Part shown: piece after piece, positions 13,829-21,622 of the stretch
Layout: every line of letters begins with the position of its first letter
Position numbering within the stretch: position 1 is the stretch's first letter
Assembly (NCBI GenBank): GCA_029260255.1
Contig: JAJDDR010000561.1
Location: forward strand, 1-40,784
Reading direction: 5' to 3'
DNA: 40,784 nt
Source: Phycisphaerae bacterium
GTDB taxonomy: Bacteria > Planctomycetota > Phycisphaerae > UBA1845
Made by a program: the position numbers and the translations under genes
Notes under the pieces: generated by a model
Databases searched by the model: none
Seen by the model: only the letters and a program-made list of their open reading frames with translations
What the model was told of the DNA's origin: nothing

Positions 13829-13852
13829 TACCGCGACTGTAAAGGACCGGCC
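13829..13852. repeat. Conserved 3'-flank motif, copy A
   Basis: It contains CCGCGACTGTAAAGGACCGG, about 25 bases beyond the stop of the minus-strand gene at 13878. The same motif follows the stops of the two other secreted-protein genes, at 17779-17800 and 19684-19705. Confidence 0.75.
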
Positions 13853-13877
13853 CATCCCCGCGCCCGCAGTGCCCGCA

Positions 13878-16800
13878 CTACCGGGGCGAGGCGCTCGGAC
13901 TGCGGATCACGGTAATAACCGCCGGCTTCGTTTCGGAAATCGCGATCTTCTCCGCGAGCGGCGCGATGAGGAACGTCTGATCACCCGCCGACTCGTCATG
14001 CAGAACATCGACCACGAACACACCAACCGCGTCGGGCGTAGCTCGGTAGGTGAAGGTAGCCAGATAGCCGTCCGCGTCCGTGGCAGCCCCGACGCCCACT
14101 TCGTAAAGACCCGCGAGCATCTGGCCGTTCTCGACGTTGAACGCCTCGAATCGGCCCGCCCCGGCGGCGAGCACCGCGTGGTCGTGTGCTTCGATGGCAG
14201 CGTCAACGAGTTCCAACTCTCCGCTACGGCCCCCGCTTGCGGCGAGGTGCAACTGATAGCTCTGGAGGAAGTCCACGGGTCGCTCGAGCAGAACACGTAC
14301 TGCGATCTCACCTCCGGCGCGTACGACGCGACTGGCAGGCACCGCACTGAGTGTGGCCTCACCCACAACGGTGGGCGCGGTGGTCGGAAGCGGAGACGAG
14401 GGGCATGAACAGACGTTGGTTCCCGAGAAACACGTCCGCGCGTGGTTAGCGTCGTGGATGTTGCAGAACCCGTCCTGAGTGCAGGATCCGAAGGGCCCGC
14501 CGCCGTCGGCGTTGATGCTCTCGCACGCGCTCTCTCCGCTGAAGCAGGTCAGCGTGTGATTGACGTCATGGATGTTGCAGAACGTATCGATGGGGCACGC
14601 GCCGAAGGAACCACCCAAGTCGGCAGGTACGGACTTGGGCGTCGAAACGCAGGAGTTGCCGACGCACTCCCACCAGACGCACACATCATCGGTGATGCCG
14701 TTCAGGTCGAGGTCGGCGCAGTCGACGGCCGCGGCGCACTCGGGAGTGGCGTCGGCGCACGCATCGACATTCGCGACAACGAGATTCGGCGTCAGACCGG
14801 CACCGGCGCTGGTAACCAGCAAGTTGTCCACAGTCGGCGTGCCAACCGTATCGTCAACGAGCTGCAGCGTGCATGTCGCGCACCCGGTCAACGGCAGCGA
14901 CGCCTCGACCGTCAACTCGACGAGATCGTATGGAGTGTCCGCCACGCCAATGGTCTCGCTGCCGTCGAAGCTGAACAGGCCTCCAGCGACCGCGCCAACG
15001 CCCGGCGTGACGGTGCCACCGAAGAAGTCCGGGCCGCTGCCGCCGTTCATCCCGTTGAGTCCTGTCGAGGGACTCACCGCGACAATCGAGCAGTTCGCCG
15101 GGTCGCTGGTCGTCACGCCAATCGAAAACGCTGCAAGATCGCCCACGGTCGCCGACAGCCGCACCGTCGCGCCGAATTGCACGGTGCCCCCCGGGGCGCC
15201 ATCGACCTGCGCGGGCGCCGCGACGCTCAGTTCGTACGCGCCCTCTGCCGGCGATTGCGGCAGTGGAGTGCTGCACAGCCCCTGATCGTAGGCGCAGTCG
15301 GGAAGCGCATCGGCGACAGTATCCCCTCCACAGGCACTTGCTCCAGGGGCCGGTGGCGGCGGACCACCAGTGAACATGTACGTCATAACGTACACGGCAT
15401 CCACCAAATCGATGCCACCGTTGTCGTCCGTGTCCGCCGCGTCTGGGCACGACGGGATCGGCGTGCCGTAAGATACATATTTGGCAAGCTGTACAGCGTC
15501 CGCAACGTCCACCGAACCATTCGCCAAGAAGTCACCTCGGCGAAAGCCATCGGGACCGGCAACCGTCGACGGGCCCCAAGCGTCACCGCTGACCGAGTCC
15601 GGCGTGCCTGGCGGGCGGAACAACCCGGCCGTGACGGTCACGGTGTCGGCCGGCAACGCTTCGGCGTCGAACCAGAAGTTGTACATGACGCCCCACCGTA
15701 GCGGGTTGCTTGTTGTCGACCAGGAGACCTCAGACGACGTAACACTCGCCGTCCACGGCACATTGTTGATCAGCACGGCATCGGGATCGACGGTATTGAC
15801 GGGCTCATCGTGGTGCGCGACGGCGTAGAACCCGACGTTCGAGACATTCATGCCGGGTGTGATAGGAACGCTGAACGAATCGACCTGGCGGTCCATGTCG
15901 ACGTTGAACAGCGCGTACTCGTAGTGCCACACGCCGCCGCCGAGGTCCGTCGCCTTCGACTTGAGTATGCAACGCCCGTCGGGCGAGACGAACTCAATGG
16001 GCGGGACAACCTCGGCAAGAATCGTGGTCGTCGCGCCGGTCCACGCGTCAACCGCGAAACCGATGGTGGGAGGAGTGCCGGAGCTGGTCTGAGTGAAACT
16101 CCACGTACCGCCGGGAGCGCCGATCGGCGTGCAAGGTTTCCACCCGGAGTTGTTCATGGCGTCAATGTCGTCGTGGCAGATGTAGATCTGGTCGTAGTAG
16201 TACGTGGCCCCCGCGTTCTGCGCAGGGTCGAGGTCCGCATCTTTGACCTGGATCCGGTGCTCAAGCGCGGTGTGCGAATGCGACCCGCCGGAGAAGTGCG
16301 AGCCGGCGTAGGTCCAGGCGCCGTTCCAGGGGTCGAGTTCGTATCTCGGCGCGAGCCACCCGGGCGTGCCGTTGCGCGAAGAGGAGTACGTGTCCGTGCA
16401 ACCGACGTTGAGCGTGCTGCAACCCGTGGGAAATGCACAACTAGTGTCGCATTGCGAATTGTCCAGCGCGCAGAACCCATGCTTGATCCACGACTGACCG
16501 ATCTGCTCGAAGCGATCGTCTTTGAGGCGGTACATGTTGTAGACGATAAACGGGTGCGCCGGATTCGGCGATGCGAACCAGTCCAATTCCGCGCCACCCA
16601 CGTTCCAACTCGTGCCGGCCGACGCGAGCCCGACGGTACTTCCGATGCGCCCCCACTGCCTGAGGTTGTAGACTTGACAGAGCGTGACGTCAGGACCGGC
16701 CCGTCCCTCGGGATCGCCCGCGACCGGTCGATCGACGATCGCTTCCGGTTCGTCTCCGTCGATCCACTCGGCTTCGAGAACCAGATGCGCCGAGCCGAGG

Positions 16801-17357
16801 CGCGTGTCCGCGAGTTCGGGGGCCGCAAGTTCGTCGGCCAGAGCCGCAGGGATGATCGTCTCGCGGACGGCGATCACCAGCTCCCGCGTCCAGGCGTTGA
16901 ACCCCGCCTTGGCACCACGGAGCAGGAGACAACCGGAGCCGACGTCGGGACGCTCATCGTCGCCCTGCCCGGTCCACCAAGCGATCGAGGACGGCGGGGC
17001 AAATACGAGTGTCGTCACCACCGCTTCGCCGGTTTCCGTGACGATCGTCAGACCCTCGGCGAGTTCGACGCGCCCACCGAAGACCTCGACCAGATCGTTG
17101 TCGTCGATGGCGAACGTGATGTCCGCTCGACCATCTACCCGCAACTCGAGCTTGGACATCGGCGCATCGGATGAAGCCTCTTCCGCCGTCGCCCCGACGG
17201 TCACGCCCCTTTCGCTGAGGAACCCATTGTAAATCGTCAGCGTCGTCGTGCCGTCGCGCGTGACCCAGACCTCCTCGCCCAAGGTTGGGACAACGCCGAT
17301 CACCAACACCAACACACAGACAACACCCCTGCCCACCGAATGACCGTTACCTTGCAT
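13878..17357 (-). CDS. Large secreted protein with dockerin-like, cohesin-like and Cys/His repeat modules
   Basis: A 1159-residue exported protein of unknown function. The ATG at 17355-17357 follows AAGGGGAT and begins a signal peptide of about 27 residues. Residues about 30-600 form a planctomycete-type domain of unknown role with several Cys clusters (for example SQCDTSCAFPTGC). Near 610-690 is a dockerin-like pair, RRGDFLANGSVDVADAVQL and then ADTDDNGGIDLVDAVYV. About 705-850 is a cohesin-like beta domain (APGGTVQFGATVRLS). About 855-960 is Cys-rich and has two FGxCxxDxFCNIHDxNHxxTCFSG repeats. The last 190 residues are another cohesin-like beta domain, nearly shared with the next gene upstream. 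It probably acts in extracellular scaffolding or adhesion. Confidence 0.88.
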   Translation of the reverse strand: MQGNGHSVGRGVVCVLVLVIGVVPTLGEEVWVTRDGTTTLTIYNGFLSERGVTVGATAEEASSDAPMSKLELRVDGRADITFAIDDNDLVEVFGGRVELAEGLTIVTETGEAVVTTLVFAPPSSIAWWTGQGDDERPDVGSGCLLLRGAKAGFNAWTRELVIAVRETIIPAALADELAAPELADTRLGSAHLVLEAEWIDGDEPEAIVDRPVAGDPEGRAGPDVTLCQVYNLRQWGRIGSTVGLASAGTSWNVGGAELDWFASPNPAHPFIVYNMYRLKDDRFEQIGQSWIKHGFCALDNSQCDTSCAFPTGCSTLNVGCTDTYSSSRNGTPGWLAPRYELDPWNGAWTYAGSHFSGGSHSHTALEHRIQVKDADLDPAQNAGATYYYDQIYICHDDIDAMNNSGWKPCTPIGAPGGTWSFTQTSSGTPPTIGFAVDAWTGATTTILAEVVPPIEFVSPDGRCILKSKATDLGGGVWHYEYALFNVDMDRQVDSFSVPITPGMNVSNVGFYAVAHHDEPVNTVDPDAVLINNVPWTASVTSSEVSWSTTSNPLRWGVMYNFWFDAEALPADTVTVTAGLFRPPGTPDSVSGDAWGPSTVAGPDGFRRGDFLANGSVDVADAVQLAKYVSYGTPIPSCPDAADTDDNGGIDLVDAVYVMTYMFTGGPPPPAPGASACGGDTVADALPDCAYDQGLCSTPLPQSPAEGAYELSVAAPAQVDGAPGGTVQFGATVRLSATVGDLAAFSIGVTTSDPANCSIVAVSPSTGLNGMNGGSGPDFFGGTVTPGVGAVAGGLFSFDGSETIGVADTPYDLVELTVEASLPLTGCATCTLQLVDDTVGTPTVDNLLVTSAGAGLTPNLVVANVDACADATPECAAAVDCADLDLNGITDDVCVWWECVGNSCVSTPKSVPADLGGSFGACPIDTFCNIHDVNHTLTCFSGESACESINADGGGPFGSCTQDGFCNIHDANHARTCFSGTNVCSCPSSPLPTTAPTVVGEATLSAVPASRVVRAGGEIAVRVLLERPVDFLQSYQLHLAASGGRSGELELVDAAIEAHDHAVLAAGAGRFEAFNVENGQMLAGLYEVGVGAATDADGYLATFTYRATPDAVGVFVVDVLHDESAGDQTFLIAPLAEKIAISETKPAVITVIRSPSASPR

Positions 17358-17825
17358 CGCTTATCCCCTTGTTTCAGTACCGGAATCGACCATACGACAC
17401 ACCCCGGCGGCGGCGGTTCCGTGCGAGACGAACAGAGCATTGAAGGCGGAGCAATACGGGCCACCGAACGCCGCAATCAGTGCTTAAGTCACTTTACCAG
17501 TGTAGGCATTGGACCGTGCAACGCAAGCGTGAAACCGCGCCGATCGAGCCGCTTGCGCGCGGCGCGCCCGACATTCTCGCAAACGGGATACTTCGCGTCG
17601 TTCGGCGCCCGCGGCGCGCACCGTGAGAGGAAGAAAGAAACCGGTGGTGTACGCGACCGCGAAGTGAACCGAGAGCGCGCCTCCGGTCGCACCGAACGCC
17701 ATCTCGTTTGGGATGCACCCGTGCGCCCGAGATGCGCACCTTCCCCGACCGCAACGCCTACGGATACGCTTGCCCGAACCGCGACTGTAAAGGACCGGCC
17801 CATCCCCGCGCACGCAGTGCCCGCA
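17358..17825. other. Intergenic region with duplicated 3' flank and gene-end fossil
   Basis: This holds the leader of the 1159-residue gene (right after 17357), the 3'-flank motif copy B, and at 17734-17779 a stretch matching the 3' end of the beta-helix gene (19742-19787) at 38 of 46 positions. I see no gene. Confidence 0.5.
17777..17800. repeat. Conserved 3'-flank motif, copy B
   Basis: AACCGCGACTGTAAAGGACC and flanking bases lie about 25 bases beyond the stop of the minus-strand gene at 17826. Similarity to copy A continues through CCCATCCCCGCGC into both coding sequences. Confidence 0.75.
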
Positions 17826-19298
17826 CTACCGGAGCGAGGCGCTCGGACTGCGGATCACAGTAATGACCGCCGGCTTCGTTTCGGAAACTGCGATCTTCTC
17901 CGCGAATGGCGCGATGAGGAACGTCTGATCACCCGCGGACTCGTCATGCAGAACATCGACCACGAACACACCAACCGCGTCGGGTGACACCCGGTATGTG
18001 AACGTCGCAAGATACGTGTGTGCCGCGGCAGTGACACTACCCGCATCGAGTCCGGCCAGCATCTGACCGTTGCCCACGTTGTACGCGTCGAACACACCGG
18101 CCGAACCCTCGAAGACGAAGTCGTCGCGTTCCTCGATGGCGATGTCGACCAAATCGAGACGCCCCCGCCGCCCCCCGCTCACGTCCAGATGCAACTGGTA
18201 GCTCTGTAGCGCGGGTTCCACCCGCCTCGATCGACCGACAGCTTCAGCATCCAACATGACGCGCACGGTCACGAGACCACCCGCAGCCACGGACCGCGCA
18301 TCGGTCGCCACGCGCAGCGCCGCGCGCCCCACAACGATCGGTTCTGCGGACAGCTCCGGCGCAGGCCCGCAGGAGCACGCATTCGTCCCCGAGAAACAAG
18401 TCAACGCGTGATTCGCGTCGTGTATGTTGCAGAAGCCATCGGGCGGACAGGCGCCAAAGGCACCTCCTGCGTCGATGTTAATGCTCTCGCACAGGTTCGT
18501 TCCACTGAAACAACTCAACGCATGGTTGCGGTCGTGAACATCGCAGAAGCCGTCCGTCTTACAGGTTCCGAATGCCCCTCCCATGTCGGAGGCGAAGACA
18601 GTCGGGTGGAGGGAACAGTTCCCCTCGAACCCGCAGTAGCACCAAGTGCAGACGTCGTCACGCACGCCGTCCTGTGGTAGGACGTCGCAACAGTCCTCGG
18701 CGGCCCAGCAATACACCTCACCGTTGTTTAGACACACGCACGTCCCCGTGTCGGGGTCACACTCGGCCGTCGCGCCGCCGCCGCTCTGGCAGAAGGCGTC
18801 GCCCGCAGGACCCGGCGTACAAGGCAGCCCGGGGATGTCGACGTTGTCACAGCCGTCGCCGCCGTTGGCGTGGAGGCAGCTGTCAAGGGTGCAATTCTTG
18901 AAGTCGTCGCAGCGGTTGACGTTGCTGCCCACGCAACTGGCACCACCGCCCCCCGGGAGATCGCCGTCAAGCGGACCGCCGGAACACATGTCCGTCAGTG
19001 TACATACATCGCCGTCATCGCAGAACGCCGTCGCAGGTTTCGCGGTGTACACGCAACCCACAAGCGCGTCGCAAGACACGTTCGTGCAACCCAAGTCGAC
19101 GGTCGCACCGGGCGTGGTGACGCAGTCGGCGATGATGCTCGGACCGTTGGTCGGAGCAGCCGGATCGCACATCAGAATGGAAGTAATCGACGAGGCCCCG
19201 TCGGGAGCCATGAACAACACCGGCCCTTGGGCCGATGCTGCAGTGGCGGCCACTCCCACAGCGCAAGTACAAAGACACAGCGCTTTTACAGGCTTCAT
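17826..19298 (-). CDS. Secreted Cys-rich protein with Cys/His dockerin-like repeats and cohesin-like end
   Basis: A 490-residue exported protein of unknown function, partly paralogous to the gene at 13878. The frame is open further upstream, but the ATG at 19296-19298 has AAGGAG before it and begins a clean signal peptide (MKPVKALCLCTCAVGVAATA). Residues about 45-240 are very Cys-rich, with CTDC-like units such as CDDGDVCTLTDMCSGG and CDDFKNCTLDSCLHANGGDGC. Two repeats follow, FGTCKTDGFCDVHDRNHALSC and FGACPPDGFCNIHDANHALTC in the 14-residue-core sense (18376-18584). The last 180 residues form a cohesin-like beta domain (SYQLHLDVSGGRRG and GVFVVDVLHDESAGDQTFLI), almost identical at its end to the paralogue. 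Confidence 0.85.
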   Translation of the reverse strand: MKPVKALCLCTCAVGVAATAASAQGPVLFMAPDGASSITSILMCDPAAPTNGPSIIADCVTTPGATVDLGCTNVSCDALVGCVYTAKPATAFCDDGDVCTLTDMCSGGPLDGDLPGGGGASCVGSNVNRCDDFKNCTLDSCLHANGGDGCDNVDIPGLPCTPGPAGDAFCQSGGGATAECDPDTGTCVCLNNGEVYCWAAEDCCDVLPQDGVRDDVCTWCYCGFEGNCSLHPTVFASDMGGAFGTCKTDGFCDVHDRNHALSCFSGTNLCESINIDAGGAFGACPPDGFCNIHDANHALTCFSGTNACSCGPAPELSAEPIVVGRAALRVATDARSVAAGGLVTVRVMLDAEAVGRSRRVEPALQSYQLHLDVSGGRRGRLDLVDIAIEERDDFVFEGSAGVFDAYNVGNGQMLAGLDAGSVTAAAHTYLATFTYRVSPDAVGVFVVDVLHDESAGDQTFLIAPFAEKIAVSETKPAVITVIRSPSASLR

Positions 19299-19765
19299 GC
19301 CTCGCTCCTTCTTGATGCCCACGCCGCCACCCTCGGCCACGCGGAGCACAAACTGTTGATTCTCTCCTGCGACGCCCAGGAGCCGGCGCGCGGGGATTGA
19401 AGTGAATCCCGATTCTGGATGTGTTTGGCAACTCACCGCAGAGGTCGTCACGCCAAACCCGCACCGGACCATCGGAACCTATCTAAGATCAGTATGGCGG
19501 AGGCTGGGGATGCCTGTCAAGGATGAAGCCAGTAAGCCTGTCAGCAATGACGTCATCCGCCATCACGGGTTGGCCGATACGGGCGCCATCGACCCCGCCG
19601 GATGCCGGCGCGGGCGCAACGAGGAACACGTCATCGGCGTCGTCAAGGAACAACAGCTCGTTCTCCAAATCCTCCCTTCAGAACCGCGACTGTAAAGGAG
19701 CGGCCTCGAAGCGCAGTGCCAGACCGGCACGCGCCCGCAACGCGCACCTCCTTCGACGCCGATGC
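19299..19765. other. Intergenic region between two secreted-protein genes
   Basis: It contains the leader and presumed promoter of the 490-residue gene and, at 19682-19705, copy C of the 3'-flank motif. An open stretch of about 60 codons on the minus strand (about 19680-19500) has no start with a sound ribosome site and no recognised similarity. I do not call a gene here. Confidence 0.45.
19682..19705. repeat. Conserved 3'-flank motif, copy C
   Basis: AACCGCGACTGTAAAGGAGC and flanking bases lie about 60 bases beyond the stop of the beta-helix protein gene at 19766. The orientation relative to the gene is the same as in copies A and B. Confidence 0.7.
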
Positions 19766-21622
19766 CTACGGATACGCTCGCCCGAACAGCAACTGGAACG
19801 TCCCGAAGTCCGAGAAGTCAACGTCGCCGTCACAGTCGGTGTCGAACACGTCACAGACTTCCGAAGACGGCGGTTCCCCCGGGCCGCTCTGACACACACT
19901 GAACGCGTCGAAGTCGAAGACGTCCACCGTCTCATCACCGTTGATCTGCCCGAATCCGGCGTATTCATACGCGCCCATGTCCACGCGAGAGCAGAGAACC
20001 CGCGGATTGCCCGCGAGGTCGACCGCGGACCCTTCCGCGCTGAAACTCGGATCGCCCGCGTCGATCGCCGGCGAACCCGTGAGCACGCGATAATCTCCCC
20101 CGGCCGAATCGACGAACATGGGATCGCCAACCACATTCCCTTCGCCGCTTGCATCTGCTGGTTCCTGAAGCAGGCTGTACATGACAGGTACCACGGCGCC
20201 GGTAACCACCCCTGGTGTTTCGTTCCCCGCAAAGACGCAGTTCTCCAGGACAAGTTCCTCCCCAGATTGTGGCCAGAATATCTGATTCACCGCACTGCCG
20301 GAACTCGCGAAGAAACCGTTGGCGACGAACGTGCAATTCCGCAGGACTCCCCTTTTTGCCCCCAATGCCCCCCCGCTCGCGGACCCAGGCCCGGACCCAA
20401 CTTCGTTGAGCGCAAGAACGCAGTTGATGGCCGTCAAACTCTGAGCCCAGATAGCACCGCCAGAGCCGGGATCACAACCACCAAGGCAGCAAAGCGCCCC
20501 CGCGCGATTTTCGAGGAACTCACTACGATGAATAGACGCCACAGACGCGTGGACGGCTCCGCCAAACCCGCCACATCCGGGCACTCCGAATTCATCGTGG
20601 CCACCGCCGTTGCCCGCGCGGTTGTCGATAAACACTGACTTCTCGATGATCACCATGTCCGACGTCGAACGTATCGCCCCGCCGCTGCCGCCGTCGCCGG
20701 AGCCCTTCAGCCCCGCGGCCCCGTCGCCCGCCCGATTGTTGTCAAACTTTGAATTCGCAATAACCAGATCTTCTGACGACGAGAATATCGCGCCTCCGTC
20801 CCCACCGTCGGCCGGCCAGCCAAGACCCACGCTACCATCGCCCGCTCGGTTGTTCGTAAACGCGCACCCGTCAAACCGAACGTGCGCATCCGCCATGACC
20901 CGCACCGCGCCCGCAGGTCCGCCGTCGACTTGAAAACAGTCGGGGAGAGGCTCACACGTGAACGGCGCCCCGGGAAGAATCCAGTTATCATCGAACAAGC
21001 ATCGCAGGACGGTTACTGTCGCGCCCGTACCGCAGAACAGCGCGCCGCCGCCCCCGTCGTCTAGCGAAAAAGAACGATTCCCTCGGAGCTCCACGTCCTC
21101 CAGCCGGACGGTCGAATTGACAACACGCATCCCGCCCCCGCCGAACACCGACACGCCGTCGGAGATGACAAACCCGCTCACCAACACCGGCTGCGACGTA
21201 TCGATGACCTTCGTCACGTGACGTGTGTTGCCGCCGACCAGATTCCCGCTGAGAACCGTCGTCAACGGGCCCAGGTTTCGCTCTTCGAGCGACGCTTCGT
21301 TGCCCACAAACGAACCGTAGAGCGATACCCCTCCGGGAATCTCGAACGACATCAACACATCGCCCGTACCGCGATCCGCCGCATAGGTACCGCCCGCAAC
21401 CCAAATGTCATCGCCGGCCGCCGAACCCGCAAACGCATCCTGGAGATCCACGAACGCGTCCGACCAACTGCTACCGTCGTTGTTACCACCCGCCCCGCCG
21501 TTGACGTAGATGACGCCCCCTCGGGCTTCGGATCGCCAAGGCGAAAACGTGCCTCCGAAACACACGAGAATCGCCGATGTGCAAGACAGAATACTCAGGT
21601 TCTCTCGTCCGAACGCCGACAT
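19766..21622 (-). CDS. Secreted right-handed beta-helix protein with C-terminal dockerin-like domain
   Basis: A 618-residue exported protein. The N-terminus has a long hydrophobic segment (LSILSCTSAILVCFGGTF), consistent with a signal peptide. Then comes a typical pectate-lyase-like/polymorphic-membrane-protein opening, VIYVNGGAGGNNDGSSWSDA, followed by ADDIWVAGGTY-type and LSGNLVGGN segments. About residues 110-480 are repeated beta-helix rungs rich in GGAI/NNRAG, such as GGDGGAIFSS and GGSGGAIRSTS. The last 65 residues are dockerin-like, with GQINGDETVDVFDFDAF and a clean EF-hand loop, DTDCDGDVDFSDF. The protein ends LFGRAYP. It probably binds or is displayed on a surface, and no active site is recognisable. 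A candidate promoter lies at 21795-21824. Confidence 0.9.
   Translation of the reverse strand: MSAFGRENLSILSCTSAILVCFGGTFSPWRSEARGGVIYVNGGAGGNNDGSSWSDAFVDLQDAFAGSAAGDDIWVAGGTYAADRGTGDVLMSFEIPGGVSLYGSFVGNEASLEERNLGPLTTVLSGNLVGGNTRHVTKVIDTSQPVLVSGFVISDGVSVFGGGGMRVVNSTVRLEDVELRGNRSFSLDDGGGGALFCGTGATVTVLRCLFDDNWILPGAPFTCEPLPDCFQVDGGPAGAVRVMADAHVRFDGCAFTNNRAGDGSVGLGWPADGGDGGAIFSSSEDLVIANSKFDNNRAGDGAAGLKGSGDGGSGGAIRSTSDMVIIEKSVFIDNRAGNGGGHDEFGVPGCGGFGGAVHASVASIHRSEFLENRAGALCCLGGCDPGSGGAIWAQSLTAINCVLALNEVGSGPGSASGGALGAKRGVLRNCTFVANGFFASSGSAVNQIFWPQSGEELVLENCVFAGNETPGVVTGAVVPVMYSLLQEPADASGEGNVVGDPMFVDSAGGDYRVLTGSPAIDAGDPSFSAEGSAVDLAGNPRVLCSRVDMGAYEYAGFGQINGDETVDVFDFDAFSVCQSGPGEPPSSEVCDVFDTDCDGDVDFSDFGTFQLLFGRAYP

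What the first reader, a model, noticed from the sequence alone, without database searches (positions are those of the whole stretch)
14410..18584. Cys/His-substituted dockerin-like repeats in two secreted proteins
Four copies of a roughly 30-residue unit occur: two in the gene at 13878 (about 14410-14502 and 14526-14617) and two in the gene at 17826 (about 18376-18468 and 18492-18584). The core is DGFCNIHDxNHxLTCFSG. It aligns with the second half of a dockerin EF-hand loop (DGxxNxxD....L), but the first calcium ligands are replaced and two or three Cys and two His are added. I infer a disulfide-locked or transition-metal-binding variant of dockerin. I know of no described function for it.
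Basis: partly seen in the sequence, partly recalled or inferred. Interest (0 to 1): 0.65.

Follow-up and report, generated by a model that had tools for sequence, protein, structure and literature searches.

The report
Disulfide-locked dockerin tags on many proteins
A planctomycete ends more than fifty of its secreted proteins with the same pair of domains, an unusual cysteine-rebuilt form of the dockerin plug used in cellulosomes followed by a matching-socket (cohesin) fold, which suggests an undescribed surface assembly system with a recognition code that differs from species to species.

Summary
The four units are real, at the stated places, and are two of about 57 copies of one C-terminal cassette in this genome. 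The cassette is a Cys-rich cap, two 38-residue units, then a ~165-residue tail with cohesin fold. Intermediates in related genomes show that the units are dockerin EF-loops with a 7-residue Cys-bearing insertion. Cys pairs covary without exception in 103 modules: unit-1 C8 with unit-2 C19 (76 both, 27 neither), and unit-2 C8 with unit-1 C19 (99 both, 4 neither). The metal-binding His half is not supported: His at loop position 11 is Ala in the sister species and mostly Phe or Ser in a third genome. Positions 10, 11, 13 and 14, which include known cohesin-recognition sites, are fixed by genome across dozens of paralogs whose cohesin tails intermix on a tree. Best reading: a disulfide-locked dockerin-cohesin dyad docking secreted proteins into a shared surface assembly. 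Binding is inferred, not shown. New variant of a known kind.

The parts
13878..17357 (-). gene 1, 1159 aa secreted protein carrying the cassette at its C-terminus
15375..15536 (-). canonical type I dockerin inside gene 1 (Pfam PF00404), separate from the variant units
14634..14720 (-). Cys-rich cap of gene 1 (CADLDLNGITDDVCVWWECVGNSC)
14517..14633 (-). unit 1 of gene 1, variant dockerin EF-loop with insertion
14400..14516 (-). unit 2 of gene 1
13881..14396 (-). C-terminal cohesin-fold domain of gene 1
17826..19298 (-). gene 2, about 490 aa from the likely signal-peptide start (ORF extends to 19472)
   Evidence: start by inspection
18600..18698 (-). Cys-rich cap of gene 2 (DCCDVLPQDGVRDDVCTWCYCG)
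18483..18599 (-). unit 1 of gene 2
18366..18482 (-). unit 2 of gene 2
17829..18362 (-). C-terminal cohesin-fold domain of gene 2

Best explanation
The units form a derived type I dockerin. Each EF-loop has gained a 7-residue, Cys-bearing insertion between ligand positions 1 and 5, and the two halves are clamped by two symmetry-related inter-unit disulfides (loop C8 of one unit to helix C19 of the other). With the following cohesin-fold domain it forms a C-terminal dockerin-cohesin dyad. The dyad acts as a shared docking tag that joins more than 50 otherwise unrelated secreted proteins (M12B metalloproteases, a trypsin-like protease, sugar dehydrogenase, FGE-like enzyme, adhesin-like repeats) into one surface assembly. 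Its partner is most likely the cohesin tails of sibling proteins (head-to-tail) and/or a membrane-anchored three-cohesin scaffoldin of the same genome. Loop positions 10, 11, 13 and 14 set a genome-specific recognition code. Shown: the repeats, homology ladder, Cys covariation, genome-fixed code, cohesin-like fold of the tail. Inferred: disulfide formation, cohesin binding, the partner, the assembly.
For: Genome-wide cassette with exactly two units 38 aa apart and a near-constant tail. Homology ladder to canonical dockerins. Hybrid proteins with one canonical and one expanded EF-loop, in G015 and in the own genome (ORF). Ligands D1, D5, N9, D12 in 47-48 of 48 sequences. Cys covariation 76/0/0/27 (P 2e-25) and 99/0/0/4 (P 2e-7) with no exception in 103 modules; 8 changes of the first pair on the cohesin tree, each matched. 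Tail: of the 50 Foldseek PDB hits listed, 49 are cohesins or cohesin complexes, and two tails hit Pfam Cohesin weakly. Genome-fixed positions 10, 11, 13, 14 exceed simulated vertical inheritance on the cohesin tree; positions 11-12 in the literature numbering are cohesin-recognition residues (PMC5141474, PMC5301203). Synonymous sites near saturation, so not recent gene conversion. One cohesin column is also genome-diagnostic, p 1e-4 per column, 0.017 after correction. Candidate anchored scaffoldin in the genome.
Against: No binding data. Both AlphaFold models are poor (mean pLDDT 47 and 34), so the dockerin fold and disulfide geometry are unconfirmed. A direct profile match to canonical dockerins fails. 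The covariation P values ignore relatedness: only 1 independent pair lies on well-supported branches of the tree. The cohesin column was found by scanning 165 columns. Whether the tail or the scaffoldin is the partner is undecided.
Confidence: 0.62

Rival explanations
1. The cassette is a closed C-terminal sorting or anchoring signal: the modified dockerin packs on its own cohesin tail within the chain, and the dyad is read by a secretion or surface-attachment machinery, like other C-terminal sorting domains.
For: Always C-terminal, strict length, very diverse N-termini. C-terminal Arg in 33 of 49 tails here and enriched in relatives. Dyad kept together in about 57, 40 and 25 proteins in three genomes.
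Against: The cohesin domain occurs widely in family f1 without the Cys-type module. A rapidly changing code at recognition positions suits a protein-protein interface better than a fixed sorting signal. No machinery identified.
Confidence: 0.2
2. A structural, disulfide-stabilised Ca2+-binding spacer without a partner; conservation reflects folding only.
For: Ca ligands and Cys are the most conserved features.
Against: Folding alone does not explain genome-specific, paralog-wide residues at positions 10, 11, 13, 14 while the neighbouring tail diverges freely.
Confidence: 0.1
3. A transition-metal site made of the added Cys and His.
For: Clustered Cys and His in this genome.
Against: His11 is Ala in nearly all copies of the sister species and mostly Phe or Ser in a third genome. 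Cys pairs are lost pairwise and independently, replaced mostly by Ala, Ser, Thr or Gly, as expected of disulfides.
Confidence: 0.04

Closest known systems
Type I dockerin (Pfam PF00404) of cellulosomes
   Same: Two tandem EF-hand-type loops, ligands at 1, 5, 9, 12, variable recognition positions 10-11, C-terminal placement on many secreted proteins
   Different: 7-residue insertion in both loops, position 3 ligand lost, paired Cys linking the units, no Pfam hit for the unit, followed by a cohesin domain
Cohesin (Pfam PF00963)
   Same: C-terminal tail has cohesin fold by structure search and weak Pfam hits
   Different: Sequence divergent; one per protein directly after the dockerin, not in a scaffoldin array
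'Planctosome' proposed for freshwater Nemodlikiaceae (PMC6461901)
   Same: Planctomycete cohesin-dockerin assembly proposed for M12B peptidases and P-domain proteins; an adaptor with both dockerin and cohesin
   Different: That proposal, in the passages read, has a handful of proteins and describes no Cys-rebuilt dockerin; here dozens of proteins each carry the dyad
Adaptor scaffoldins and X-dockerin dyads of clostridia and ruminococci
   Same: Dockerin and cohesin in one chain (PMC11557425); inserted dockerin regions known in R. flavefaciens (PMC5301203)
   Different: There, few scaffoldins; here a uniform C-terminal tag on >50 proteins

Membership tests
Type I dockerin | Two tandem repeats with Ca ligands 1, 3, 5, 9, 12 | tested here: inconclusive
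   Two repeats; 1, 5, 9, 12 conserved, 3 absent, 7-residue insertion
Type I dockerin | Significant profile match to PF00404 | tested here: not met
   No hit for the unit; direct hhalign 0.25%
Type I dockerin | Common descent with canonical dockerins | tested here: met
   Through intermediates: 99% then 95%; hybrid proteins
Type I dockerin | Pseudo-twofold packing of the halves | tested here: inconclusive
   Symmetric Cys covariation agrees; AF2 model uninformative
Type I dockerin | Ca2+-dependent binding to a cohesin | not testable with these tools
   needs ITC or pull-down
Cohesin | Jelly-roll cohesin fold | tested here: met
   49 of the 50 listed PDB matches are cohesins, best E 3e-6, although model pLDDT is moderate
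Cohesin | PF00963 above cut-off | tested here: not met
   tails reach 18-20 bits vs cut-off 24.1
Planctosome (PMC6461901) | Cohesin-dockerin proteins with M12B peptidases and P-domains in a planctomycete | tested here: met
   Reprolysin and P_proprotein domains on cassette proteins; the system itself is hypothetical

The most novel reading that the evidence does not exclude
More than fifty secreted proteins per genome self-assemble head to tail through a disulfide-locked dockerin on each chain and the cohesin next to it on a sibling chain, forming a mixed extracellular lattice whose species-specific recognition code drifts in concert across the whole set.
Probability: 0.27. Interest if true: 0.8.

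Novelty: new variant of a known kind. Interest (0 to 1): 0.6.

Why it matters
It extends cohesin-dockerin biology to a large non-cellulosomal system in planctomycetes, with a dockerin rebuilt by loop insertions and symmetric disulfides. It offers a natural experiment, 57, 40 and 25 matches in three genomes with three fixed codes, for how a shared docking interface changes specificity in concert. A disulfide-locked docking pair could also be a useful robust tag. The PMC literature searches made here showed no description of it; subscription journals are mostly not held.

Tried and rejected
Pfam and NCBIfam scans of the proteins and of 30 cassettes: no family for the unit. PDB sequence search: only scorpion-toxin hits at E 0.2-0.4, chance. 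Direct comparison with canonical dockerins: fails, which is why intermediates were sought. Gene conversion as the cause of uniformity: rejected, synonymous diversity 0.62-0.68 vs 0.67-0.69 expected. Metal-binding His: rejected by the sister species. The Fisher table printed for the cap Cys pair (16/4/0/28) holds three parsing errors (L017, L018, L073 do carry WC); corrected by eye it is 19/1/0/28.

Full report
What is there. Two adjacent minus-strand genes (13878-17357; 17826 to about 19298) encode secreted proteins that end in the same cassette. They are not confined to the window: a degenerate core pattern hits 49 places in the 5.75 Mb genome with 0 in the control, and a profile of 48 modules gives 57 matches. 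Nearly every copy lies about 195-235 aa from the C-terminus, with two units exactly 38 aa apart and a cap 43-55 aa before the first. The layout is: cap C(C/G/A)D-x-D-x-NG-xx-DD-xC-xW..C, unit 1, unit 2, Pro-rich linker, tail.

The units are derived dockerins. Pfam and NCBIfam have nothing for them, and a direct comparison with canonical dockerins of the same genome fails. Related genomes hold intermediates. G021 has near-canonical GDVNHDGLVDIFDILCVLDGFAG plus a second half with a short insertion. One G015 protein pairs a canonical first loop, DVDRDGDVDVFDV, with an expanded second, DIAGFLGSCTPDGMVDVFDV. Other G015 proteins have both loops expanded. Profiles join at 99% (units to intermediates) and 95% (intermediates to canonical). 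The own genome even has a hybrid, DIAGAFGACDPDGFCNVHDVSSVLACMTG..CDVNCDGTVDLLDA. The loop therefore gained 7 residues between ligand positions 1 and 5. D1, D5, N9 and D12 remain in 47-48 of 48 sequences; only ligand 3 is gone. Ca2+ binding is thus possible but untested.

The Cys are paired. Across 103 modules of three genomes, unit-1 C8 and unit-2 C19 are both present in 76 and both absent in 27, never mixed. Unit-2 C8 and unit-1 C19 are both present in 99 and both absent in 4, never mixed. The two pairs are never lost together. On the cohesin tree the first pair changes 8 times, matched each time, though many branches are weak. In the cap, the second Cys of CCD goes with the Cys of WC (19 of 20 vs 0 of 28 after correcting three parsing errors). 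Two symmetric inter-unit disulfides are the natural reading and fit the twofold packing of dockerins.

The tail is a cohesin. A model of the cassette is poor overall but its tail strands reach about 80 pLDDT, and 49 of the 50 PDB matches listed are cohesins. Two tails give sub-threshold Pfam Cohesin hits. The tail is common in the family (26 of 36 f1 genomes searched, own included), whereas the full Cys-type module is abundant in only three: the own genome, one of the same genus, and G022. G022 is the Phycisphaerae MAG OFTM258 (contig lengths shared).

A genome-specific code. Loop position 11 is His in 100 of 100 units here, Ala in 60 of 64 in the sister species, and Phe in 19 of 21 second units (Phe or Ser in most first units) in the third genome. 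Positions 10, 13 and 14 behave alike. These sites include those known to govern cohesin recognition (PMC5141474, PMC5301203; that EF-loop 10-11 equals their 11-12 is my reading). Cohesin tails of the three genomes intermix in well-supported clades, so the uniform code cannot be simple inheritance along that tree: simulation on it gives p below 5e-5 for the strongest columns. Synonymous sites are near saturation, so recent gene conversion is not the cause. One tail column, just after QMLxGL, is the sole clearly genome-diagnostic one: acidic in 71% here, aromatic in 66% and 55% in the others. From memory it lies near the known dockerin-binding strand of cohesins; this is a lead only.

What it probably does. 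The N-termini are unrelated: reprolysin proteases, trypsin with P-domain, glucose/sorbosone dehydrogenase, FGE-like enzyme, beta-helix repeats. A shared docking tag explains this best. Candidate partners are sibling tails, or a scaffoldin-like protein with three cohesins and a C-terminal membrane segment, split over contigs C437 and C527 whose ends share 20 bases. The proposed planctosome (PMC6461901) is the nearest concept. Binding, disulfides and assembly remain inferences.

Noticed in passing
window 13830-14066 and 17778-18014: 237-nt direct repeat, 92% identical, covering the last ~63 codons and 3' flank of the two cassette genes, much closer than the rest of the cassettes; a local recent duplication or conversion.
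   Followed up: partly
window 13832-13852, 17780-17800, 19685-19705: 21-bp element CGCGACTGTAAAGGANCGGCC just downstream of three consecutive minus-strand genes; its 15-bp core occurs only 6 times in the genome, 3 of them here.
   Followed up: partly
G000:C437 (L237) and G000:C527 (L081): Scaffoldin-like protein: signal peptide, three cohesins with Cys-rich linkers, C-terminal membrane segment, apparently split over two contigs with a 20-bp end overlap.
   Followed up: partly
own genome, L089, L095-L108: A second C-terminal dockerin class: canonical dockerin with conserved end PFDLLxFRQLxNG..ATRxWAxE..P at the very C-terminus of many proteins.
   Followed up: no
cassette tails, G000, G001, G022: Last residue is Arg in 33 of 49, 19 of 28 and 15 of 20 tails; meaning unknown.
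   Followed up: no
window 19766-21622 (-): Third gene upstream encodes an adhesin-like protein ending in a canonical dockerin-like pair (INGDETVDVFDFDAF...DTDCDGDVDFSDFGTF).
   Followed up: no
G004, G034, G011, G017, G018: Relatives without the Cys-type module carry cohesin-like tails, some in ORFs of about 200 aa that may be free-standing cohesins.
   Followed up: no
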